Shown here one piece after another: positions 5,924 to 38,693 of a stretch of 64,000 nt of DNA. How positions within the stretch are numbered: the first letter of the stretch is position 1; each line of letters begins with the position of its first letter. The stretch lies in contig JASANE010018604.1 in assembly GCA_030248225.1 (NCBI GenBank), positions 1-64,000 on the forward strand, given 5' to 3'. A model generated the notes under the pieces. That model made no database searches. It had not been told where the DNA came from and saw only the letters and a program-made list of their open reading frames with translations. This DNA is from Trileptium ribeirensis (lineage: Eukaryota; Nematoda; Enoplea; Enoplida; Thoracostomopsidae). The position numbers and the translations under genes were made by a program.

Positions 5924-5931
5924 ATATTTAC

Positions 5932-7076
5932 CAGGGAGTAACCGGAATTCCGGTTCCGGCGAAAATCGTGTTCCGGTTGCGGTTCCGGCAAAGGGCAAAA
6001 ACCATACCGGAACCGGAATTCCGGTTTAAAAATTTTGTTTGAAATTTTCCGCGTTTTTGCTTCATCCTGTAATCCAAGCATATGTAATATATATTATACA
6101 ATGATCAAGCTCCAATACAACCAAGCAAAAGAAAAGATTAACTAACCAATTAGCCGTGTGAAACGTAAGTAGGGCACATACTTTGAGCAGGAATTTTTCA
6201 TAATAATCTGCAGGAGTTTGTTAAATCAAAGCCAGGTCGATGCCTGTAGCAGCTATTTTACACATCCAGAAGTTTCCGGGTTACTTTCGAATTAAACCAG
6301 TCCAACTGGGTAGCAGAGTATGGCTTACGTAGAAGTACTTAGCGTATGCTTGGACAATATAAATTGCATCAAGCACCAGCCAGTGTGTTTGTAAACTTTG
6401 TAAATCAGGCGAAATTGAAGTAAACTAACGTTATCTGCAGCGCAGCTAGAAACTGCTTTCTAGGCAATGAACTGCATTTATTGAAACTGTGCGAGCAGTA
6501 TCACAGTTTGTCTCATTTACAGGATTCTGATTAGAAAGTTATCATCATTATGATCTAACTGACGGGCACAACGCTAGCCTAAACAGTGTCTCTAACCACT
6601 GATCACAAAATTACCTTCTACCTATTATTTTCTCTTAGAATCATATAAACCAATAATTTTAAGCTTCCTACAGAAGAAAATGCAACAAACGTATGTGTAG
6701 TAAAGGGAGGCGACTGGAGACAGAGCGAAAGTGTGTATTCTACGCTCCAAGCTTTGTAAGCATATTCGATTTGACGCAGTATACGCAATGGTGTATAGTG
6801 GAAGACATTTTTTGGTCTGAATGTCTAAAAACCGACATATTTGATCGATAAATAAACATTAATAGCTTGCTCAGTCTCTTTAAAGTTTGAGAAAGGCAAT
6901 AATACCATTGCAATACATAAAGTTTAATGTAAAAGTTATTTTTAAAGCATTTTAAATTCACTATACCTTCATTTCTTCCTTCATCTGTTTTACTATATAT
7001 AAATTTCGAAGACCAGGTTCAGGTTCCGGTTCCGGATCCGGTTTAAATGAAGGGTTCCGGTTCCGGTTATTCCCTG
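5932..7076. mobile_element. non-autonomous hAT-type element, copy 1
   Basis: Terminal inverted repeats CAGGGAGTAACCGGAATTCC and (reverse complement of the right end) CAGGGAATAACCGGAACC, flanked by a perfect 8 bp target duplication ATATTTAC (5924-5931 and 7077-7084). Eight-base duplications and CAGGG ends are hAT hallmarks. Subterminal GGTTCCGG/CCGGAACC motifs are repeated at both ends. No transposase-like frame is visible in 1145 bp. A diverged copy lies at 13618-14742. Confidence 0.88.
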
Positions 7077-13400: not shown

Positions 13401-16400
13401 ATTCCCGGCCATACCCAGACCCGCCCTCCTGGAATATAAACCGGTTCCGAATGGCAGCAGCCTGAAACAAAAATACACACAGCTAGGTTCTTGTATATAA
13501 TTTCAAATACTTAACAAATTATGAACGTTATATTGCATAATTTTATGCGTCTAAGTCTTCAACTATGTATACAGATATATATACTTAATTAAAAATAGTG
13601 GAACATAAGATAGATAGCAGGGAGTAACCGGAATTCCGATTCCAGCGAAAATCGAGATCCGGCTGCGTTTCCGGCAAAAGACAAAAATCATGCCGGAACC
13701 GGAATTTTGGTTTAAAAATGTTGTACGAAATTTTACACATTTTTGCTTTATCTATGATCCAAACAGATGTAACATATTATACACATTGATCAAGTTCCAA
13801 TGAAACCAACAAAAATAAAAAATTAACTCAACAAATTGCAACCTGAAACATAAATACGACACATAATTTCAGCAGGATTTTTCATTTTAACACTGCAGAA
13901 GTTCTTCAACAAAACAAAACCAGCTGAATGCTGGTAGCTACTATTTTACACATTCAGAAGTCTGCGGAGTATGTTAGAATTAAAATGTTCCAACTCTGCA
14001 ACAGAGTATAAATTATTTAAAAGTACTTAACTATTATCTTGGCTAACATAAATTGCGTCAAGAAACAGCCAATGCGCTATAAACTTTGTAAATCAGTCTA
14101 CTTTGAAATAAAGTAACATATCTGCAAAGCAGCCAGAAACTGAGTTCTTGTCAATGAACTGTATTAATTGTAACAGGGCGAGCAGTATAACAGTATGTCT
14201 AATTTATAGCATTCTGAACAGAAAGCTATCATCATTATCATCCAGCTGACGGGCAGTGGATGCCCAACGCCAGCCTAAACAGTGTCTCTGACCGCTGACC
14301 ACAAAATTATATTATACCTTCTTTTATTGTCTTTTAGAACCATATCCTACAGCATAACGTGCAACAAATGTATGTGTTGGAAAGGGAGGCAATTAGAGAC
14401 AGAGCGAAACTATTTAGTCTACGGTCCTTCGAAACATGTTTAGTTACAACAGTGCACATTGAGTTTGCACAAGGCTGTTGTAGTGGAAGGCGTTTTCTTT
14501 GCCCCGAGAGTCCAAAAACCTACACATTGATGAATAAATAAACATAACTAGCGTCTTCAGTATATTCAAAGTTCCAAAGGCTACAATGCCATTGCAATAA
14601 TTTAAGTTTAGTGTAAAAGTTATTTTTAATACATTTTAAATCCAGTGTATCTTCATTTCTTCCGTCATCTGTTTTACTATATATAAGTTTCGAACACCAG
14701 GTTCCGGTTTTGATTTAAATGAACGGTTCCAGTTATTCCCTGATGGATAGGCATGACATTTGCCGTATCACACAATACGTTTATGCTATTAACATTCCTT
14801 GCACAGATTAAGTTTAATTTCAGTTAACTCTACGATTGCCTCTACTGCTCTGAGAAATAGAATTTGAAACTCCGTGTGCTAGTCACTAAGCTATTTCAGA
14901 GTCATTATTCGAAAAGTGCGCGAATTACATTCAAGCAAAAGTACAGTAGAGTACCCACTGTATTCAAGCAACTACGTCATACAAAGGAATAAAAGTAATG
15001 CGTGAGTATAACGTTTATTTAATGCAAAAGTAACGTCAAAAGCAAATCGATTCGGTAGTTAATATCTTGGCGCTCGCGAACAAAACCGGTTTACTTCTAA
15101 TTCGACAAATTTTCGTTGTTGAACATTTAAGTAATTGAGCGGAGCTAAACGTTTTTGTTTTCGTCAGAAGGAGAAAAATTGGCATCGCGCGTCCGTTGAA
15201 CTCCTCAATAACTACTGGGCCGATTTAAAATTTTTTTGTTTGAAAGGCCAAATATCGATGAGGTGCAAGACATATCGATCTTGTCAAAATTTGCTTTAGT
15301 TAATTAATAATTACCCAATTAGTTATGCGGCGTTCACGTTATAATGTCCCCGCTGTTTGAAACTTTTGACCCCCTGTAGTCGCGATGCTACTGTATAGAC
15401 AGTCAGGGTGAAACCCATACTGTATATCAAATGCCGAGGGTGTACGACACACCCTTAGCTACTACATTTTTTCTAAACAGTGTCGTACACACCCTTAGCT
15501 ACCGATTTGGCGCGAATTAACTATAACGGACACCGTCTGTAGCTAATGCGTTGTATTAGTCAACTGTTCTGTGGAGTTTTTCCTAAATTCTCGATATTTG
15601 TATCTAGCCCATATGAACATTGCTCAAATAATTCCGAACACTGTCAATAAAACTGCCAGAAGACACGGTGTGTCTGACACTGTCGGTAAGCGGTAATACG
15701 CGTAACTAGCTACCGTTGAAAAAATTTATTAAAAACATGGGGGTGTCTACGACACCCTGTTGTCAACAGTGTGTCTGATACAGTGTGGGGTACATAGGTT
15801 CCAAACGTTGGGGACATTATAACGTGAACGCCGCATTAAGCGTGTTAGCCTAATGCCAGCATTTCCACAAAAATTGCTTATTTTTCAATTAATTCATTAG
15901 CTAATTATATATATATGTAATTTTATGCACATTTTAAAATCACTTCAAAATTGCGAATTTGTTGCGCTCGTTTTCGATGTTGCTGATCATGAGTATGTGG
16001 CATTTAAAGCTCTATGATTTTACCATGGGTGCTAATTAATTAATTAGCTATTTAGTTAGTGTTACTAATTAGCAAATTTTTTAGCTAGCGAGCATTTGGT
16101 ATGATAGATTTGACATCAATTGTCTAAAACGTTACATATACTTATTATAAATTGATTTAATATTTAGTTGAAATACACGTATACACAACTAAAGTACCAA
16201 ATACTCTATCTGCTGCTAAACTCACTTTTTGTAAATTATTACGTTGACTAGTTTCACTTGAATTTTTCCGAACATAAAATGGCTATGTTTCAATCGAGCA
16301 GTGCGCTCGCGAACAGTTTTACGCCGATATTCAAAATTACAAATTAGGATGGTTGTTGTGGTCACCTTAAGTTTACTTGAGCATTACTCTCAAGGCACGA

Positions 16401-27850: not shown

Positions 27851-28315
27851 CATTTATGTGACATCAGAAATATCAATGGAAGCAGGAATCTATATATTGT
27901 TTTTAAAATCAAGTTTTCTAAATATATCCAGCGGAAATATAAAATTATTTCACCTTGCTAGAAGAAACAAATTTTTTCGTAAACAATTCTTCTATGCACT
28001 TGAATCGTGGCATACAATGCAATTAGCATTGTGCATTTATTGACGTTTATTCGCAAGATTGCTTATACACTGTTTACTCCCTGGCGCAGCACAGCATAAT
28101 TCAAACTTTGAATGAAAGTTACAGAAGACTTTCAGAGAACGCATTATTATTGTTAACGTCTTAAAATGTGGATTACTGCACATATGCTGAGGAGAAATTG
28201 ATTGAACTATTTTTTTACAGAACATCACGGTTACGCGCTTTAATTTATACATGTTACTGATTCGAATACAGGGTTTAAGAAATGACGAAAGCAATACCGT
28301 CCAAGCTGGGGTCAC

Positions 28316-28590
28316 ATCAATCGTTTGGGGAGGGGCGCTTCAATCGTTCGGGGTACTTCAATCGTTCGGGGGGCACTTAAATCATTCGGCGGAGGGGGCA
28401 CATCAATTGTTTGGGGGCGCACTTCAATCGTTCGGTGGGCGCTTCAATCGTTCGGAGGGGCACCTCAATCTTTCGGAGGGGGCAGTTCAATCGTTGGGAG
28501 GGGCACTGCAATCTTTTGGAAGAGCACCGCAATAGTTGGGTCCACTTGAATCCTTCCAAACGGGCACTTCAATCGTTCCGACGGCACTTC
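28316..28590 (+). repeat. TTCAATCGTTCGG minisatellite, array 2
   Basis: About thirteen units of 17-25 bp, GGCACTTCAATCGTTCGGGG. The linkers are G-runs, giving dense quadruplex-type GGGG motifs on the plus strand. With array 1 it forms a 1.6 kb inverted arrangement around GC module B. Confidence 0.85.
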
Positions 28591-31464: not shown

Positions 31465-31489
31465 CCAACTGTAATGCTAATAATTTGAT

Positions 31490-31524
31490 ATGCAAATTAA
31501 TGCTAACAATTTGCCTATGCAAAT
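31490..31524 (+). promoter_or_regulatory. two octamer (ATGCAAAT) sites in U3
   Basis: Perfect ATGCAAAT octamers at 31490-31497 and 31517-31524, the consensus bound by POU/Oct factors. They sit in a tandem duplication of about 27 bp about 30-60 bp upstream of the TATA box. Both copies are kept in the 3' LTR. Factor binding is inferred from the motif only. Confidence 0.5.
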
Positions 31525-31550
31525 TATATACGTTAGCAAAGACGATAGAC

Positions 31551-31558
31551 TATATAAG
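31551..31558 (+). promoter_or_regulatory. LTR TATA box
   Basis: TATATAAG. Thirty bases after its first T is AGTCATT, at the usual distance for an insect-type initiator. The same spacing from a TATA box to an AGTC-type start recurs at 50039, 56405 and 57392. Confidence 0.6.
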
Positions 31559-31752
31559 GCGTTCGTGATCTCGACTAACCAGTCATTATTCACTTGATCA
31601 ACTGCCGCACGTCGTGACGATAGATGATTCCTCAATCGACGCCCAAAGACTCAACGACCACAACAGCGTGCCGATTGAAGAGAAGCCTGACTGAAGGTGA
31701 TTGAAAGTAAGATCATTGACAATTGATGATAAGTGATTATAAACTAATTACA

Positions 31753-31770
31753 ATGGTGAACCCGACGCGG
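31753..31770 (+). other. primer binding site, tRNA-Trp-like
   Basis: Directly after the 5' LTR the sequence is A-TGGTGAACCCGACGCGG. It pairs with the 3' end of animal tRNA-Trp as I recall it (complement TGGTGACCCCGACGT) with about one mismatch over the first 14 bases. The gag ATG at 31753-31755 overlaps the primer site, so the first Gag codons double as primer site. Confidence 0.7.
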
Positions 31771-33162
31771 GCACGCCGGCCTTCCCTCTTTCGGATCCTG
31801 CCGGTCCTTTTCGCGCTGGCACTGGCGGTTCTCAGGTCTCCTATGGTCCGGACCTCGACGGTCCTGGACACGGTCGCGGTACCCGAGGTTCCTCAAGTCG
31901 AAGCCCCCTGGTCAAGGGTCGCTGTTGTTTCCGGATCAAATGGTCGATTCAAGGGCTCCGGTCAAAGCAAGTGGCGACGGTCGAGAATGCTGGTCACACG
32001 TACAGTCAATCCGGGGTTCCCCAGTTTCATCGGTTTTCATCTCCCTGGTTGCTCGGGTCAAGGTCTCGGTCGACGACAGGCAACCTGCCTACGGGTCCTG
32101 CTGGTCATTGGCGACGTCGAGCGTAATCCAGGGCCGGTCAATCTGTCGCAACAAACCAAGGACACGCTGGCCGGGATGCTACAACTCCTTAAGGCAAGTG
32201 ACAAGGCGTTCGTTATGCCACCGACGCGTGACGAGATGATCACGGAGCTCACTCCATTCGGGCCTGATGTGCTGCAATTGGCACACAGTCAGCTGGCCAT
32301 AGTTCAGTTTCAAAACAACGCTGGACCAAGTCAAATCGAACGACCACAACCGAGCGCTACCGCAGGTCAATTCTATCAGTTGCCGCAGTTCAACCCGAAG
32401 ACACCGCAGTCGTGGTTCAACCAGGTCGAACAAATCCTCGGTTCAATCGACGACGACCTCAAGAAACGAACCGTCCTTCGGGTGATCGACAACGCGCTCG
32501 TCCACGAGTCGGGGGTCGACCTCAACGCGGGCTATGGCGAACTCAAGCGGACGCTGATCAACTACTACGCCGACAGCGACAACCGGCGGCTCCGCAAGCT
32601 CCTCGCCGAGAAGGACCTCAAGGGACGCAAACCATCGAGCGCCCACCGCGAACTCCTCGAGCTGGCTCCGAATAGTCAGGATTTCGTCCGCCTGCGCTTC
32701 CTCGAGATCCTCCCCGAGCAAATCCGGCTGACGCTGGTTTCAATGGACAACGTCTCCCTCGAGCAACTGGCTCGCATCGCCGACACCATGATGGAGATGG
32801 CCGATCCGGCGTTGGTCAGCCAGGTCAATCGAGCTCCTCGTTCAGGCTCAACACCGACGACGACAGATCACTGGCAGGCCTCGATCCAGCAGCAAATCAG
32901 CGACCTGGCAGCAGCTGTCCGCAGGCTGTCCTACCGCAGCGGCTCAAGCAATCGGAGGTCGCCAGAACGAGCGAACAACAACTACCGCAGTGGCCGCCAC
33001 GGTGATCAACGACGCCGGCCACAGTCTCAATCACGTCAACGAACGCCGGGGGTGTGCTGGTATCATGGGAAGTTCGGGGCCAATGCACAACGATGCCAAG
33101 GGCCCAAATTCTGCACATTCAACGCGGAGTCCGGCCCCGCCAGCGGTCCGGGAAACGAGTAG
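31753..33162 (+). CDS. gag: leader peptide - 2A - Gag polyprotein
   Basis: 469 residues from the ATG adjoining the LTR; an upstream in-frame ATG at 31723 lies in the LTR and is less likely. Residues 1-127 form a leader: basic RARR then a hydrophobic run from about L12 to L27 (LFRILPVLFALALAVL), which looks like a signal peptide or anchor. Residues 120-128 are GDVERNPGP, matching the D-x-E-x-N-P-G|P consensus of 2A peptides that make ribosomes skip a bond; release would be between G127 and P128. The rest is capsid-like: the segment RRLRKLLAEKDLKGRKPS and the following LPEQIRLTL region resemble Gag of CsRn1/Mag-type elements. An arginine-rich stretch precedes a CHCC knuckle C435-x2-H438-x9-C448-x5-C454. 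The stop at 33160 is two codons after a frameshift site. The GC-rich codon use differs from the AT-rich surroundings. Confidence 0.93.
   Translation: MVNPTRARRPSLFRILPVLFALALAVLRSPMVRTSTVLDTVAVPEVPQVEAPWSRVAVVSGSNGRFKGSGQSKWRRSRMLVTRTVNPGFPSFIGFHLPGCSGQGLGRRQATCLRVLLVIGDVERNPGPVNLSQQTKDTLAGMLQLLKASDKAFVMPPTRDEMITELTPFGPDVLQLAHSQLAIVQFQNNAGPSQIERPQPSATAGQFYQLPQFNPKTPQSWFNQVEQILGSIDDDLKKRTVLRVIDNALVHESGVDLNAGYGELKRTLINYYADSDNRRLRKLLAEKDLKGRKPSSAHRELLELAPNSQDFVRLRFLEILPEQIRLTLVSMDNVSLEQLARIADTMMEMADPALVSQVNRAPRSGSTPTTTDHWQASIQQQISDLAAAVRRLSYRSGSSNRRSPERANNNYRSGRHGDQRRRPQSQSRQRTPGVCWYHGKFGANAQRCQGPKFCTFNAESGPASGPGNE
32080..32136 (+). promoter_or_regulatory. 2A-like translational recoding sequence
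   Basis: The codons read LRVLLVIGDVERNPGP, with the skip point between GGG (32131-32133) and CCG (32134-32136). The canonical residues D, E, N, P, G, P are all present and are preceded by a hydrophobic helix-prone stretch, as in active 2A peptides. 2A-like peptides are known from RNA viruses and some non-LTR retrotransposons, where certain ones also act as signal sequences. Confidence 0.85.
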
Positions 33163-33194
33163 CCCCCACCGCCGTGGCAGCAAGCGGTGGGGCT
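33150..33194 (+). promoter_or_regulatory. gag-pol -1 frameshift signal (GGGAAAC plus stem-loop)
   Basis: Heptamer G-GGA-AAC at 33150-33156 sits in the correct gag reading phase (X XXY YYZ). A 4 nt spacer (GAGT) leads to a stem: AGCCCCCACCGC at 33161-33172 pairs with GCGGTGGGGCT at 33184-33194, 11 pairs with one bulged C and an 11-nt loop. Slipping back one base moves from gag into the protease frame, which is open from here on. Confidence 0.85.
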
Positions 33195-34620
33195 GTCAAC
33201 GCTGTGTTCATCGATGCAACTTCAGTCGGGCGCTTCATCGCCGATAGCGGGAGTTCGCTTTCCTTCCTACACCCCTTACAAGCGCCGAACACCACTACCT
33301 TCCACCAACATCCGGTCGACGCCACCGCAGTTAACGGTACGCCGGTCGAGATCAAAGGTACGTGCAACTTAACTTTCCGGCTCGCGGGCTTTGATCAGAA
33401 ATTCAGCTGGACTTTCTACGTCGCCAACGTCGCCCATCCGATCCTTGGCCAGGATTTCCTCCGGCACTACGGGTTCGCGGTCGACTGCGTCAACAACCGC
33501 CTGGTCCCGGCAGCAACCGCAAAGCCTCCTGCGGCCTGTTGCGCGACAACCACGAAGCCCGAATCGATACCATCGGACGTTCGAGTCGACATACCTGCTG
33601 AGACAACCAGGATCAAGCAGCTCCTCCGCGGATTCCCGAGCATCTTCGAGCCGATCGATGCCTTCTCGCCGGCTCTCCACGGCATCGAACACCACATCGT
33701 TACCACGGGACCGCCGCGCTTCGACCGCCCACGTCGCCTTGATGGACAAAAGCTGGCGATCGCAAAGCGGGTGTTTTCCGAGTGGGAGCAGCAAGGCATC
33801 GTTTATCGTGGTGAATCCCCTTACGCGTCACCTTTACACATGGCCCCAAAGGCGGATCCCAAAACTCCCTACCGCCTGACTGGTGACTACCGAAAGCTCA
33901 ACCGTCAAACGGTTCCCGATCGTTATCCGATGCCGAACCTCACGGACCTCTCCGGCGATTTTCACATGGCGACTGTCTTCTCGAAGCTGGACCTCGTCTG
34001 CGCTTATACACAGATTCCTGTGGCGGTTCAGGATCAACCTAAGACGGCCGTCACAACTCCGCTCGGCCTGTTCCTGTTCAGGCGGATGTTTTTCGGTTTT
34101 CGTAACGCCGCTCAAACCTTCCAGCGGCTTATGGACTCGGTCCTGGGTGATTTACCGTTTGTCAAGGTCTATCTGGACGACATCCTGGTGGCCAGCCGCT
34201 CAAACGACGAGCATCTGCAGCACCTCAAAACGCTCCTCACCCGCCTCAACAACCACAGTCTCCGCCTTCGCCCGGACAAGTGCGTTTTGTTCAGCCCCAA
34301 AGTCAACTTCGTCGGGGTAGAGGTCGATACAAACGGCGTGCGGCCTATACCGTCCAAGGTCAAGGTCATCCTCGACTATCCGTGCCCGGAAACAACGAAG
34401 CTCCTGCGCGGTTTCCTGGGTATGGCCGGCTGCTACCACCGATTCATTCCGGGATTTTCAAGGATCGCCGCTCCTCTCACCGACCTGATACGGGGTAAAG
34501 CTGGTAAAGGCAACTTTAGTTTAACCTGGTCGGACGACAGCCGCCAGGCATTCGATGCACTCAAATCGGCCGTTGCTGCCGCGGTGAAGCTCTCGTTCCC
34601 CAACCCGCAGGTCGACTTCA
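33156..34620 (+). CDS. pol: Pol segment 1: protease and reverse transcriptase
   Basis: Frame -1 relative to gag, entered by frameshift; the first in-frame ATG at 33054 is probably not used. The aspartic protease active site ADSGSSLSFL has DSG at 33243-33251. RT follows with SPYASPLHMAPK, DYRKLNRQTVPDRYPMP, a KLDLVCAYTQIPV box (usual KLDL-x-A-Y-x-Q-I-P; T where H is common), FRRMFFGF and catalytic YLDD at 34170-34181. The thumb/connection follows with GFLGMAGCYHRFIPGFS. Reading continues to a stop at 34697, but the coding match leaves this frame at about 34611-34625, where the RNase H start is one frame over. So a small indel breaks the polyprotein here. Confidence 0.92.
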
Positions 34621-34621
34621 A

Positions 34622-35662
34622 CTCGCTACCGATGCGTCCGGCGCCGCCGTGGGCGCTGTCCTCAACCAAGTGGTCGATGGCAACGCGGAGCCCTTAGCAT
34701 TCTACTCGGAGAAGCTAACACCGCTGGAATCCCGCAAATCCGCGTTCGACCGAGAGCTTCTGGCAATCTACAAAGCCCTGAAGCACTTTCCGTGGCTTAT
34801 CGGCTCCGATTTCACCGTGCGCACCGACCACAAGCCACTCGTCAACGCTCTCTCGATGGCGAATCCTTCCGCACAGCAGTCTCGATGGTTGTCCTTCATC
34901 TCAGAGTTCGGTTGTGACATCGAGCACGTAGCAGGCGCCCACAATGTCGTGGCAGACGCTCTCTCTCGTCCTGTGTGCACTATTTCAATTGCGTTTGACA
35001 GTCAACTGGCTGATGCTCAAGCTGCTGATTCTACCCTCATACGGTTTATTCAATCAACCGATCTGCCCATCAAGCGTTTCGTTATCGACGGCAAGACGGT
35101 TTACTGTGATGCTTCCACTTCGCAACTTCGCCCGTACGTTCCCACGGAAATGCGGTTCAACATTTTCAAATCGGTGCACAACCTCGCCCATCTTGGTTCG
35201 CGCGCAACTCTCAGCAGCATCTCCCACAACTACATTTGGCCAAACATGAATCGTGACGTCAAGACATGGTGCCGTGAGTGTATCAAATGCCAACGGAGCA
35301 AAGTAGTACGACACACAAAGGCTGCAGTCGGAACAATCCCAACAACTGGACGTTTCCACACGGTGCACATTGACATTGTTGGTCCGTTGCCGTCTTCGAA
35401 TGACAAGCGTTACTTGGTAACCATTATCGATCGATTTACTAGATGGCCCGAAGCAATTCCCATCTCCGACATTACTACTGAGTCAGTGGCAGAGGCGCTC
35501 ATCTCCGGTTGGATAAGCAGATTCGGCGTTCCGCGTGTCCTGATATCCGATCGCGGCACGCAGTTCGAATCTGCGTTATGGTCATCCCTCATGGAGCAAC
35601 TAGGAATTGAACACCGTCGAACGACAGCCTATCATCCAGCATGCAACGGCGCTGTTGAACGT
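34622..35662 (+). pseudogene. pol: Pol segment 2: RNase H and integrase (frame-broken both ends)
   Basis: RNase H begins LATDASGAAVGAVL (first Asp), continues FDRELLAIYKALKHF (Glu) and TDHKPLV (second Asp), and ends in AHNVVADALSRP. Integrase has an HHCC finger (VHNLAHLG, CRECIKCQ) and a core with Asp in HIDIVGPLP (35372), Asp in SDRGTQF (35549) and Glu in GAVER (35657), a D-x35-E spacing with all catalytic residues present. Immediately after, a run of six T at 35662-35667 carries a net frame change. The open frame runs on to 35857 but no longer resembles integrase. Confidence 0.9.
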
Positions 35663-36135
35663 TTTTTCATCGTACGCTCAAAAACGGATTGCGTGCTCAT
35701 TGTTCTTTCGCTACGTGGACAGCCTCACTTCCTCTCGTCTTGCTTGGAATTCGCACGAGCCTCAACGATAAAGGTTTTGCTCCATGTGAAATGGTGTTTG
35801 GATCCAGTATTGATTTGCCACACCATTATTTTACGCCAACGTCGACTAAAGAGTTAGCGTCAGAACATGATTTCAAAATACGACTATTTTCCGGCATCCG
35901 CCGTCTTAATGCTCCTGAGCGTCACCACAACAAACAATGTTACGTGCCGACGAACATTAAAATCGCCAAACACGTATGGATACATGACGACTCCACTAAA
36001 AACACTCTACAACCGCGTTATCGTGGTCCGTACCAGGTACTAGATCGGGATGATAAAACTGTTGTCGTCAAATGTCAAAACGGTGATGATCGAGTAAGCC
36101 TCGACCGCATTAAATCTGCCTTTCTAATTGATTAA
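35659..36135 (+). pseudogene. pol: Pol segment 3: integrase C-terminal part
   Basis: Next frame over from segment 2. It shows LPLVLLGIRTSLNDKGFAPC and EMVFG, the conserved region after the catalytic core. LQPRYRGPYQVLDRDDKTV and VSLDRIKSAFL follow, the GPY/F-type C-terminal module. It ends at TAA 36133-36135. The break lies in the T run at 35662-35667, so an assembly or read error is as likely as a real mutation given the near-identical LTRs. No chromodomain follows in this frame. Confidence 0.88.
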
Positions 36136-36136
36136 G

Positions 36137-36565
36137 ATGGCACAAACACATCATCCGCACCCTCGAACTTCTTCGAGCGACACTCTCCGTGAGCAGAGCG
36201 ACATTAATATCGGTCACGACGAACAGATAAAAGAAGGCACGGTGATTCTGGCGAAAATTCGAAATTGGCCATGGTGGCCTGCACTCGTTACCTCGTCAGC
36301 AAAAACGGAACTATCGTCTCTGAAACAACCACATAACTCACTCGCGGTAAAATTTTTCGGTACGGAACGCCTTGCTTTCGTCCCGTTCCAATCGATTCGT
36401 CATTTTGAACCTAATCCAACGGTCAAGCGTTCGGACCTGCGGCGCGCCTTCGACATAGCGTCTCAGCATTTGAAGCCTCATCTGGGGTCAGCCGTCACCT
36501 GCACCAACAGTAAAAAAGTTCGTTTTGCACCTCAGGCTGTTGTGTTCGGTCGGCGCTCCGCTTAA
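36137..36565 (+). CDS. PWWP-domain protein encoded by the retrotransposon
   Basis: 142 residues from ATG 36137, which follows the pol stop TAA (36133-36135) after a single G. An N-terminal polar tail of about 33 residues precedes a PWWP domain: GTVILAKIRNWPWWPALV (motif P45-W46-W47-P48), LAVKFFGTERLAFVPFQSI (residues 69-87) and an amphipathic KRSDLRRAFDIASQ (97-110). PWWP domains bind methylated histone H3 lysine 36 and DNA. By alignment with LEDGF from memory, the cage positions would be I41, W47 and F73. The C-terminus is short and basic (KKVRF). The overlap-like stop-G-ATG junction suggests reinitiation after pol. The likely role, by inference, is tethering the integration complex to methylated chromatin, as chromodomains do in chromoviruses or LEDGF does for lentiviral integrase. 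Only 14 bp separate the stop from the 3' LTR. Confidence 0.85.
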   Translation: MAQTHHPHPRTSSSDTLREQSDINIGHDEQIKEGTVILAKIRNWPWWPALVTSSAKTELSSLKQPHNSLAVKFFGTERLAFVPFQSIRHFEPNPTVKRSDLRRAFDIASQHLKPHLGSAVTCTNSKKVRFAPQAVVFGRRSA

Positions 36566-36579
36566 AACAATGGGGGTTC
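36566..36579 (+). other. polypurine tract region
   Basis: AAACAATGGGGGTTC-type sequence abutting the 3' LTR. The purine run is short (AATGGGGG), but its position is that of the plus-strand primer. Confidence 0.6.
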
Positions 36580-36862
36580 TGTAATGCTAATAATTTGATA
36601 TGCAAATTAATGCTAACAATTTGCCTATGCAAATTATATACGTTAGCAAAGACGATAGACTATATAAGGCGTTCGTGATCTCGACTAACCAGTCATTATT
36701 CACTTGATCAACTGCCGTACGTCGTGACGATAGATGATTCCTCAATCGACGCCCAAAGACTCAACGACCACAACAGCGTGCCGATTGAAGAGAAGCCTGA
36801 CTGAAGGTGATTGAAAGTAAGATCATTGACAATTGATGATAAGTGATTATAAACTAATTACA
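36580..36862 (+). repeat. 3' LTR of the gypsy element
   Basis: Same 283 bp as the 5' LTR with a single C-to-T difference, immediately followed by the CCAAC target duplication. It is preceded by AATGGGGGTTC, the likely polypurine primer (about 36569-36579). Confidence 0.97.
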
Positions 36863-37295
36863 CCAACATTCTACCATTCGCTATTTTCATTACAAGCATC
36901 GAACCATTACTCGTCAATGTCGCTTGAGTCAAGCTCAGAAGCTCAGGACCTGAATTTCCAATCCAATCACGTGCTGCAGTGCCAATCGAGTGAAGAGTTC
37001 ATATCGACCACTGAGTTTTTGGAAGCATCAAAACACCGATCATCTGTATTGTGCAATTTTCGCAAAAGCACTTTTCAAATCACAAACTCCATTCACGATC
37101 GTCAGCCATGTATTTGCGATAAATACACAGATTTTTGGAATTTTTCTTTGTTTCTCCGCCGTTTACTAATACCTATCAGCACGGTCGTCCTGCTGCTGGC
37201 TCAGCGTGGTCTGAAATTGTCAGACGATATTTACATGGTCAAGAGAGTGCAAACAAGATCAAAGAAGTGTGGTTCCAAGGAACTATGTTTTTAAT

Positions 37296-37573
37296 TGAAT
37301 TGAATTTAAGAAATCGAATACATCCGAGAAGGTCGTCTTAATATGAAATTTTTTTGGTATCAACGGATGAGATGCCCAGTAGGTTATGGGATGTGTCTGT
37401 CCAATAGATGTTCGTTTTTCAAGCACGATATTTAAATATTTCTCTTGAAATGTGGTCATACATATAGAAACATTTGTTGCACGCCATTCTTGATTGGTTA
37501 AATGTGAGCAACGAGACGGGGTAAATTTGATATTTAGGAATACCTATAGCCATTACCTCACAAAATGTGTTTG
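37296..37573 (+). repeat. dispersed repeat family, copy 1
   Basis: About 278 bp, GAATTGAATTTAAGAAATCG to CACAAAATGTGTTTGTCG, about 95 percent identical by eye to 38250-38529. It begins 0.4 kb right of the gypsy element. The ends are not TG/CA, so it is probably not an LTR. Confidence 0.85.
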
Positions 37574-38249
37574 TCGATTTATTAAGTGTATGAATCAGAA
37601 GCCAAAGTATGGAACAATGTGGCAGCTGTGAGAAAAATATCAATTGTTCAAAATAGTACTGTTTTATAGCTTAGATTGAATATCCGAGACTCAAATTAAG
37701 TGATATCAAATATTTTACCTTGAATTTCGACAAAGGTGGTCAGCTGCGCAGTTGTGTTAGAGAATTCCGAATATGCAATTTGTTACCTTAGCTAGTGGCT
37801 TCATGTTATACTTATTCAGTTACATTCCACAACATATTTAATCTAAAAATGGTACAGATTAACATAGTTGTGTATTTAATAACGTAAATATGTATATCAC
37901 GTTTATGTTTGAGTGATAAGCATGGCGCTAATGCAAAATTTTGAATTTGTCTAACATGAAAACGGCACGAGTCAGAATAAAATTAATATACATTTAAATT
38001 ACCATCGAAAACGGCATAATGACCTATTATTGTTAAAATGGGAGGAAAAGTTTTATATTATTTTGTTCCCGAATGTTTAACTTAACCACGTTCTTGAATC
38101 TTCAGACAAGTTTAATGTTTTCCTATAAGTAGGGTAGCATCTCTTAATCTGACAGTGATTCTCCTTTGTCAGTGGTTCGTTCAAACATCCGCTACATTCG
38201 AAATATACGGTCAATATTTGCATTGCTCTTCATCAAGTTTATATAATTG

Positions 38250-38693
38250 ATGAATTGAATTTAAGAAATCGAATACATCCGAGAAGGGCGTTTTAATATG
38301 AATTTTTTTGGTATCAACGGATGAGATGCCCAGTAGGTTATGGGATGTGTCTGTCCAATAGATGTTCGTTTTTCAAGCACGATATTTAAATATTTCTCTT
38401 GAAATGTGGTCATACATATAGAGACATTTGATACACGCCATTCTTGATTGGTTAACTGTGAGCAACGAGACGGGGTAAATTTGATGATTAGGAATACCTA
38501 TATTCATTACCTCACAAAATGTGTTTGTCGCCTTTTTTCAATTGTACATGTATGATTGTATTAAAGGTTGAACTTATTCTGCTTAGCAGTGGATCGACGT
38601 ACGTGGTGACTTCCTACATCACCATATCGGCTCCTTTATGGCGACAGATACTGTTTTTTAGAAATGCGACCCCAGCGATCTGGAGGTCGCACT
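38250..38693 (+). repeat. dispersed repeat family, copy 2
   Basis: The first 280 bp match copy 1. The last 260 bp (from about 38440, through GGATCGACGTACGTGGTGAC to ATGCGACCCCAGCGATCTGG) match copy 3. Confidence 0.85.

What the first reader, a model, noticed from the sequence alone, without database searches (positions are those of the whole stretch)
36137..36565. A Ty3/gypsy retrotransposon encodes a stand-alone PWWP-domain protein after integrase
Seen: a 142-codon ORF between pol stop and 3' LTR, with PWWP motif (NWPWWPALV), the FFGT strand and a basic amphipathic helix, inside an insertion bounded by near-identical LTRs and a 5 bp duplication. Known: PWWP folds read H3K36 methylation, and chromodomains fused to integrase steer chromoviruses. 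Inference: this protein tethers the integration complex to methylated gene bodies, a chromatin-targeting module I do not know from any LTR element.
Basis: partly seen in the sequence, partly recalled or inferred. Interest (0 to 1): 0.92.

Follow-up and report, generated by a model that had tools for sequence, protein, structure and literature searches.

The report
Retrotransposon integrases fused to PWWP domains
The window holds a slightly decayed copy of a jumping gene whose DNA-inserting enzyme normally ends in a PWWP module, a part that in host proteins reads a chemical mark on chromatin, so these elements probably carry their own guide to where they insert.

The parts
31465..31469 (.). Target-site duplication CCAAC, left
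   Evidence: matches 36863-36867
31470..31752 (+). 5' LTR, 283 bp, TGTAAT...ATTACA
   Evidence: 1 mismatch of 283 to the 3' LTR
31754..31767 (+). Primer-binding site TGGTGAACCCGACG, of the tRNA-Trp kind (match to tRNA-Trp recalled, not computed)
   Evidence: same site in family loci, longer in L023/L027
31753..33162 (+). Gag frame: about 127-aa leader ending in a 2A-like peptide, then Gag (DUF7041, E 1.5e-5, 25.7 bits, under its cut-off of 28)
32110..32136 (+). 2A-like motif GDVERNPGP
   Evidence: NPGP form in 21 of 21 loci incl. the window
33055..33114 (+). Gag CHCC-type zinc knuckle
33054..34697 (+). Pol piece 1, overlapping Gag in the -1 frame: protease-like DSGS 33243-33254, reverse transcriptase (VYLDD 34167-34181); frame breaks near its end
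34649..35857 (+). Pol piece 2: RNase H, integrase H2C2 and core; true frame lost at about 35640-35700
35689..36135 (+). Pol piece 3: integrase C-terminal part, closed by a stop at 36133-36135
36137..36565 (+).
36221..36484 (+). PWWP domain (residues 29-116); cage positions I41, W47, F73
36512..36526 (+). Basic V-x-F tail motif (KKVRF)
36567..36579 (+). Polypurine-tract-like ACAATGGGGGTTC directly before the 3' LTR
36580..36862 (+). 3' LTR
36863..36867 (.). Target-site duplication CCAAC, right

Best explanation
The window carries a recent, since broken copy of a CsRn1-like Ty3/gypsy element from a deep lineage in which a PWWP domain is fused to the C-terminus of integrase. Shown: the fusion, its single clade, its spread in this genome and in other datasets, the predicted PWWP fold, and purifying selection. 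Inferred: the PWWP sits on the outside of the integration complex, binds nucleosomal DNA and a methylated histone tail (most likely H3K36me2/3) in an aromatic cage, and tethers the element's cDNA to transcribed chromatin for insertion. That is the job LEDGF does in trans for HIV integrase and chromodomains do in cis for chromoviruses. In the window copy the domain is detached by mutation and is probably not functional.
Against: No binding or insertion-site data. The first cage position varies (F 15, I 3, M 2, V 2, H 1, Q 1 of 24 rows), so ligand choice may differ between families. P0131 lies inside the clade with a complete-looking Pol tail and no PWWP, so the domain can be lost. In C7762 (frame 1142 aa, one stop) no PWWP was listed. 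Three of 12 loci of the best PF00855 places (L057, L063, L065) have no integrase nearby, so the genome's PWWP count is not a count of fusions. PWWP evolves faster than integrase (median distance 0.65 against 0.46). Recent pairs show no constraint (L048-L049 dN/dS 0.93; L021-L053 2.6 with almost no synonymous change), as expected after insertion. Two of the diverged pairs have dS near 2, close to saturation.
Confidence: 0.78

Rival explanations
1. A separate third gene: the element makes a free PWWP protein, by reinitiation at TAAGATG, that works in trans.
For: The window copy has a stop and, after one base, an ATG opening the ORF.
Against: In 22 of 26 other family copies the PWWP frame crosses the junction with integrase; all 14 fetched loci of other families are fused (several are near-duplicates); the ORF's first ten or so residues are out of frame with the family.
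Confidence: 0.03
2. The PWWP is a general nucleosome or DNA clamp that keeps the integration complex on chromatin without regard to H3K36 methylation.
For: The cage position 41 varies. For HIV, chromatin tethers of quite different kinds can replace the LEDGF tether (abstract of PMC2706977).
Against: W47 in 24 of 24 and F73 in 22 of 24 rows would not need to be kept for DNA binding alone, though they may also serve the fold.
Confidence: 0.25
3. The PWWP reads a methyl mark other than H3K36me (H3K79me, H4K20me) or guides the element away from genes, into silent chromatin.
For: PWWP domains with other ligands are known (recalled); 3qj6 (HDGF2 with an H3K79me3 peptide) is among the fold matches.
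Against: The nearest sequence and fold matches are mainly LEDGF/HDGF/DNMT3/BRPF domains, whose usual ligand is H3K36me (partly recalled).
Confidence: 0.15
4. Recent chance capture of a host PWWP exon by one element, without function.
For: A PWWP without integrase nearby, perhaps a host gene, exists (L063).
Against: One deep clade, co-divergence with integrase, presence in other datasets, purifying selection.
Confidence: 0.01

Closest known systems
Chromoviruses (Ty3/gypsy with integrase-fused chromodomain)
   Same: A histone reader fused to the C-terminus of integrase, kept across a clade (recalled; also stated in abstracts listed)
   Different: PWWP in place of chromodomain; CsRn1-like Pol; expected mark H3K36me (active genes), not H3K9me (recalled)
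Ectocarpus Gypsy-10_Ec32 (integrase-Tudor) and Ectocarpus chromodomain Gypsy lineages (PMC12477816, passages read)
   Same: Non-chromoviral Gypsy with a chromatin-reader domain at the end of Pol; PWWP and Tudor are related folds (recalled)
   Different: Tudor or chromodomain, another lineage and host kingdom; the word PWWP does not occur in that paper's main text
CsRn1 clade (CsRn1, PwRn1, AgCR; PMC2582038, passages read)
   Same: CHCC Gag motif, PBS of the tRNA-Trp kind, -1 overlap of Gag and Pol as in most AgCR elements
   Different: PWWP on integrase and 2A-like leader before Gag, neither mentioned in the passages read; lineage branches apart from the CsRn1-like rows in the tree
LEDGF/p75 with HIV-1 integrase
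   Same: PWWP as part of a chromatin tether of an integrase; LEDGF/HDGF are the best solved relatives by sequence
   Different: A host protein acting in trans through a separate integrase-binding domain (abstract of PMC2706977); here covalent and element-encoded

Membership tests
PWWP domain (PF00855) | Profile match over the curated cut-off | tested here: met
   46.5 bits against 25.6; 10 of 10 relatives
PWWP domain (PF00855) | PWWP fold | tested here: met
PWWP domain (PF00855) | Binding of methyl-lysine histone and DNA | not testable with these tools
   cage residues aligned only
Ty3/gypsy LTR retrotransposon | LTRs, TSD, PR-RT-RH-IN order | tested here: met
   protease by the DSGS motif only
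CsRn1 clade | CHCC Gag motif | tested here: met
   33055-33114; defining role from PMC2582038
CsRn1 clade | tRNA-Trp primer-binding site | tested here: inconclusive
   TGGTGAACCCGACG(TGATC) in window and loci; the tRNA end was recalled, not computed
CsRn1 clade | Pol phylogeny | tested here: inconclusive
   Apart from, and next to, database rows that include flatworm elements; no named CsRn1 reference was in the tree
Chromovirus | Chromodomain on integrase | tested here: not met
   PF00855 and no chromodomain match in the C-terminal pieces
Integrase-reader fusion elements | Histone-reader domain in one frame behind the integrase core | tested here: met
   met by relatives; the window copy itself is broken there
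Integrase-reader fusion elements | Reader domain directs insertion | not testable with these tools
   no chromatin or gene annotation for this host

The most novel reading that the evidence does not exclude
A whole lineage of animal-type LTR retrotransposons has built the LEDGF solution into its own integrase: the fused PWWP reads H3K36 methylation and sends new copies into transcribed gene bodies. The lineage has kept this device since before its families split, together with a 2A-split Gag leader and, in one branch, a NADAR third gene that might counter host ADP-ribosylation.
Probability: 0.42. Interest if true: 0.88.

Novelty: new variant of a known kind. Interest (0 to 1): 0.78.

Why it matters
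Chromodomains (heterochromatin; recalled) are the classic case of a reader fused to a retrotransposon integrase, and a Tudor case was reported in 2025 (PMC12477816). If the PWWP reads H3K36me, this would be, as far as my searches show, the first self-encoded reader of the mark of active gene bodies on a retrotransposon integrase, and a natural cis version of the LEDGF-HIV tether. It also explains an apparently odd 'stand-alone' ORF as decay of a fusion.

Tried and rejected
Stand-alone gene expressed by reinitiation: rejected. Chance ORF: length alone is not significant (about 10%), the domain match is. Protein search with P0001 alone found nothing (11 candidates, 0 hits at E 0.01), and so did three scans of viral contigs. 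The empty protein search was probably a limit of word filter and length window, since the later search with the integrase-PWWP alignment found nine fused relatives. Six short contigs from prokaryote MAGs carry RT-like genes; none matched P0001 by tblastn beyond chance; L001 is a CsRn1-like element without PWWP. The single-sequence AlphaFold model was poor (pLDDT 42) and its fold search weak (no match at E 0.001, though PWWP chains ranked first); both were replaced. A 138-row tree was built but not shown because the script failed; the tree reported has 54 of those rows, all 24 PWWP rows and 30 of the 114 others. Host identity: Rfam and tRNA scans of the window empty; a COX1 search gave only a stop-ridden stretch under the bacterial code that could not be cut out; host left unnamed. 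Codon usage of the ORF is nearer to the element's than host-like random codons are, but not clearly beyond uniform ones; not used. No report of a PWWP in an LTR element: paper searches (held library only; listings and abstract starts read; one search listed 20 of 130 and 15 of 23, and the 20 do not hold the word PWWP). 2A in LTR elements: nothing relevant seen in two listed titles and abstract starts. NADAR in retrotransposons: ten of 104 listed, most seemingly hits on author names; one real case (PMC12477816).

Full report
What is in the window. The insertion 31465-36867 is bounded by a 5-bp duplication CCAAC and two 283-bp LTRs that differ at one position. The LTRs start TGTAAT and end ATTACA, a primer-binding site follows the 5' LTR, and a G-rich tract precedes the 3' LTR. 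Gag (31753-33162) has a leader of about 127 aa that ends in a 2A-like peptide, a DUF7041 match (25.7 bits, under its cut-off of 28) and a CHCC knuckle. Pol overlaps Gag in the -1 frame and carries a protease motif, RT, RNase H and integrase, in three frame-shifted pieces. These traits are among those given for the CsRn1 clade in PMC2582038 (passages read). A search for duplications around LTR ends of the window's type found 4-bp ones in L015, L018 and L020 of the window's family and in L023 of another (4 of 13 loci examined beside the window).

It is not stand-alone. A search of the window's own assembly (687 Mb, 20,229 contigs) with P0001 scored 150 places of 493 candidates; 20 of the 150 lie in one open frame of at least 1000 aa. 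I fetched those 20. In 19 of 20 the PWWP closes an open frame of 965-1214 aa with about 900-1065 residues before it (L020 is broken inside the PWWP). Several of the 20 are near-duplicates. Identity to P0001 runs from 98.5% to 32.7%. Pieces of ten of them match both the integrase core and PWWP in one frame. The Pfam PWWP model scored 150 places of 777 candidates, all 150 over the cut-off, 27 of them in frames of at least 1000 aa (counted by hand); together that is 38 places, in which integrase was not checked one by one. Of 12 loci cut from the best of these places, nine have integrase beside the PWWP and three (L057, L063, L065) do not. The 14 named control genomes gave no match. From the other side, the RT piece scored 95 matches; 34 RT places lie in frames of at least 1000 aa (counted by hand). 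A PWWP on the same strand about 1.5-2 kb downstream was listed for 29 of these and for four more; C7762 remained without. In a few of the 33 (for example C1500) stops or frame changes part the two. Of 26 other copies of the window's family that I fetched, 22 have the PWWP frame crossing the junction with integrase (counted by hand). The window copy does not, because of a stop at the end of integrase and a frame change about ten codons further on.

Outside this genome. The search with an alignment of eight RNase H-integrase-PWWP pieces returned 3285 proteins among 8000 scored candidates; 120 were listed. The nine best (P0122-P0130) all carry PF00855 behind integrase. The other 111 listed do not. 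Two of these, P0131 and P0133, end in a complete-looking tail without PWWP.

Evolution. On a tree of 54 rows (all 24 PWWP rows and 30 of 114 others) built from RNase H-integrase columns alone, the 24 PWWP rows and four others form one side of a branch with support 100/100. P0003 and P0005 stop before the place of the PWWP and say nothing. P0131 sits inside the clade and looks like a loss. P0133 branches first and may predate the gain. PWWP and integrase distances go together (r 0.72 for 19 rows, 0.65 for 17 thinned, 0 of 5000 permutations each). Between families dN/dS of the PWWP is 0.23 (L015-L048), 0.22 (L015-L049), 0.24 (L022-L054), 0.10 (L029-L032), 0.34 (L051-L052) and 0.22 (L015-L021). 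Two further pairs (L026-L031, L026-L032) were saturated and gave no value, and two recent pairs gave 0.93 and 2.6. Integrase pieces compared in the same call were often short and are not used. Among 22 copies of the window's family, changes shared by two or more copies are 12 synonymous to 5 non-synonymous where neutrality expects 2.34 non-synonymous per synonymous. Singletons are 20 to 46, as neutrality predicts. So the domain is kept while elements multiply and decays after insertion.

Cage. In 24 aligned rows W47 is invariant and F73 is kept in 22. Position 41 is F in 15, otherwise I, M, V, H or Q. Most copies of the window's own family have M, as LEDGF has M15 (recalled); the window, L012 and L014 have I.

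Mechanism. Shown: fusion, clade, constraint, predicted fold. Inferred: the PWWP binds nucleosomes with a methylated tail and so steers insertion. Precedents are LEDGF with HIV integrase, where tethering as such is what counts (abstract of PMC2706977), and chromodomains of chromoviruses (recalled). The mark and the direction of targeting are not shown.

Novelty. PMC12477816 (passages read) reports chromodomain and Tudor fusions to Gypsy integrases in brown algae and calls the Tudor case the first known to its authors. The seven PWWP searches made in the held library showed no PWWP fusion in their listings. I therefore call it a new variant of a known kind.

Noticed in passing
L029:804-1883:-; L032:702-1781:-; L028:547-1614:-: One branch of the PWWP elements has a third ORF of about 360 aa between Pol and the 3' LTR: a NADAR domain (E 6e-28, 5e-28, 3e-29) and, in L029 and L032, a weak GDSL/SGNH-like second half under the cut-offs (PDB NADAR 8bau). 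Similar by eye in L033, broken in L026 and L031. It might reverse host ADP-ribosylation (inference).
   Followed up: partly
window 32110-32136 and L015-L034: 2A-like NPGP peptide at the N-terminus of Gag in 21 of 21 loci; the strict D-x-E-x-NPGP form in the window and 9 of 20 loci. In the window the leader before it begins with a hydrophobic stretch.
   Followed up: partly
L057:1-1956:- and L065: A different protein with a 2A-like peptide directly followed by a PWWP domain and no integrase nearby; the rest looks like a transposase-like protein of another mobile element (recalled resemblance; Pfam matched only PWWP). PWWP may have been taken up by mobile elements more than once.
   Followed up: partly
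36512-36526 and Pol C-termini of relatives: A basic V-x-F tail motif (KKVRF, KSVTF, KTVRF...) ends Pol in most of 24 aligned PWWP rows and is also seen in PWWP-less P0131 and P0133, so it is probably older than the PWWP. It resembles a PP1-docking motif (recalled); function unknown.
   Followed up: partly
L063:1399-1848:+: PWWP of 150-aa frame without integrase nearby, perhaps a host gene exon and a candidate donor type.
   Followed up: no
window 28306-28584: Tandem array of about 21-bp units (CACTTCAATCGTTCGG...).
   Followed up: no
window 5929-7025 / 13615-14709 and 37296-37583 / 38251-38537: Further dispersed repeats, 76% and about 95% alike.
   Followed up: no
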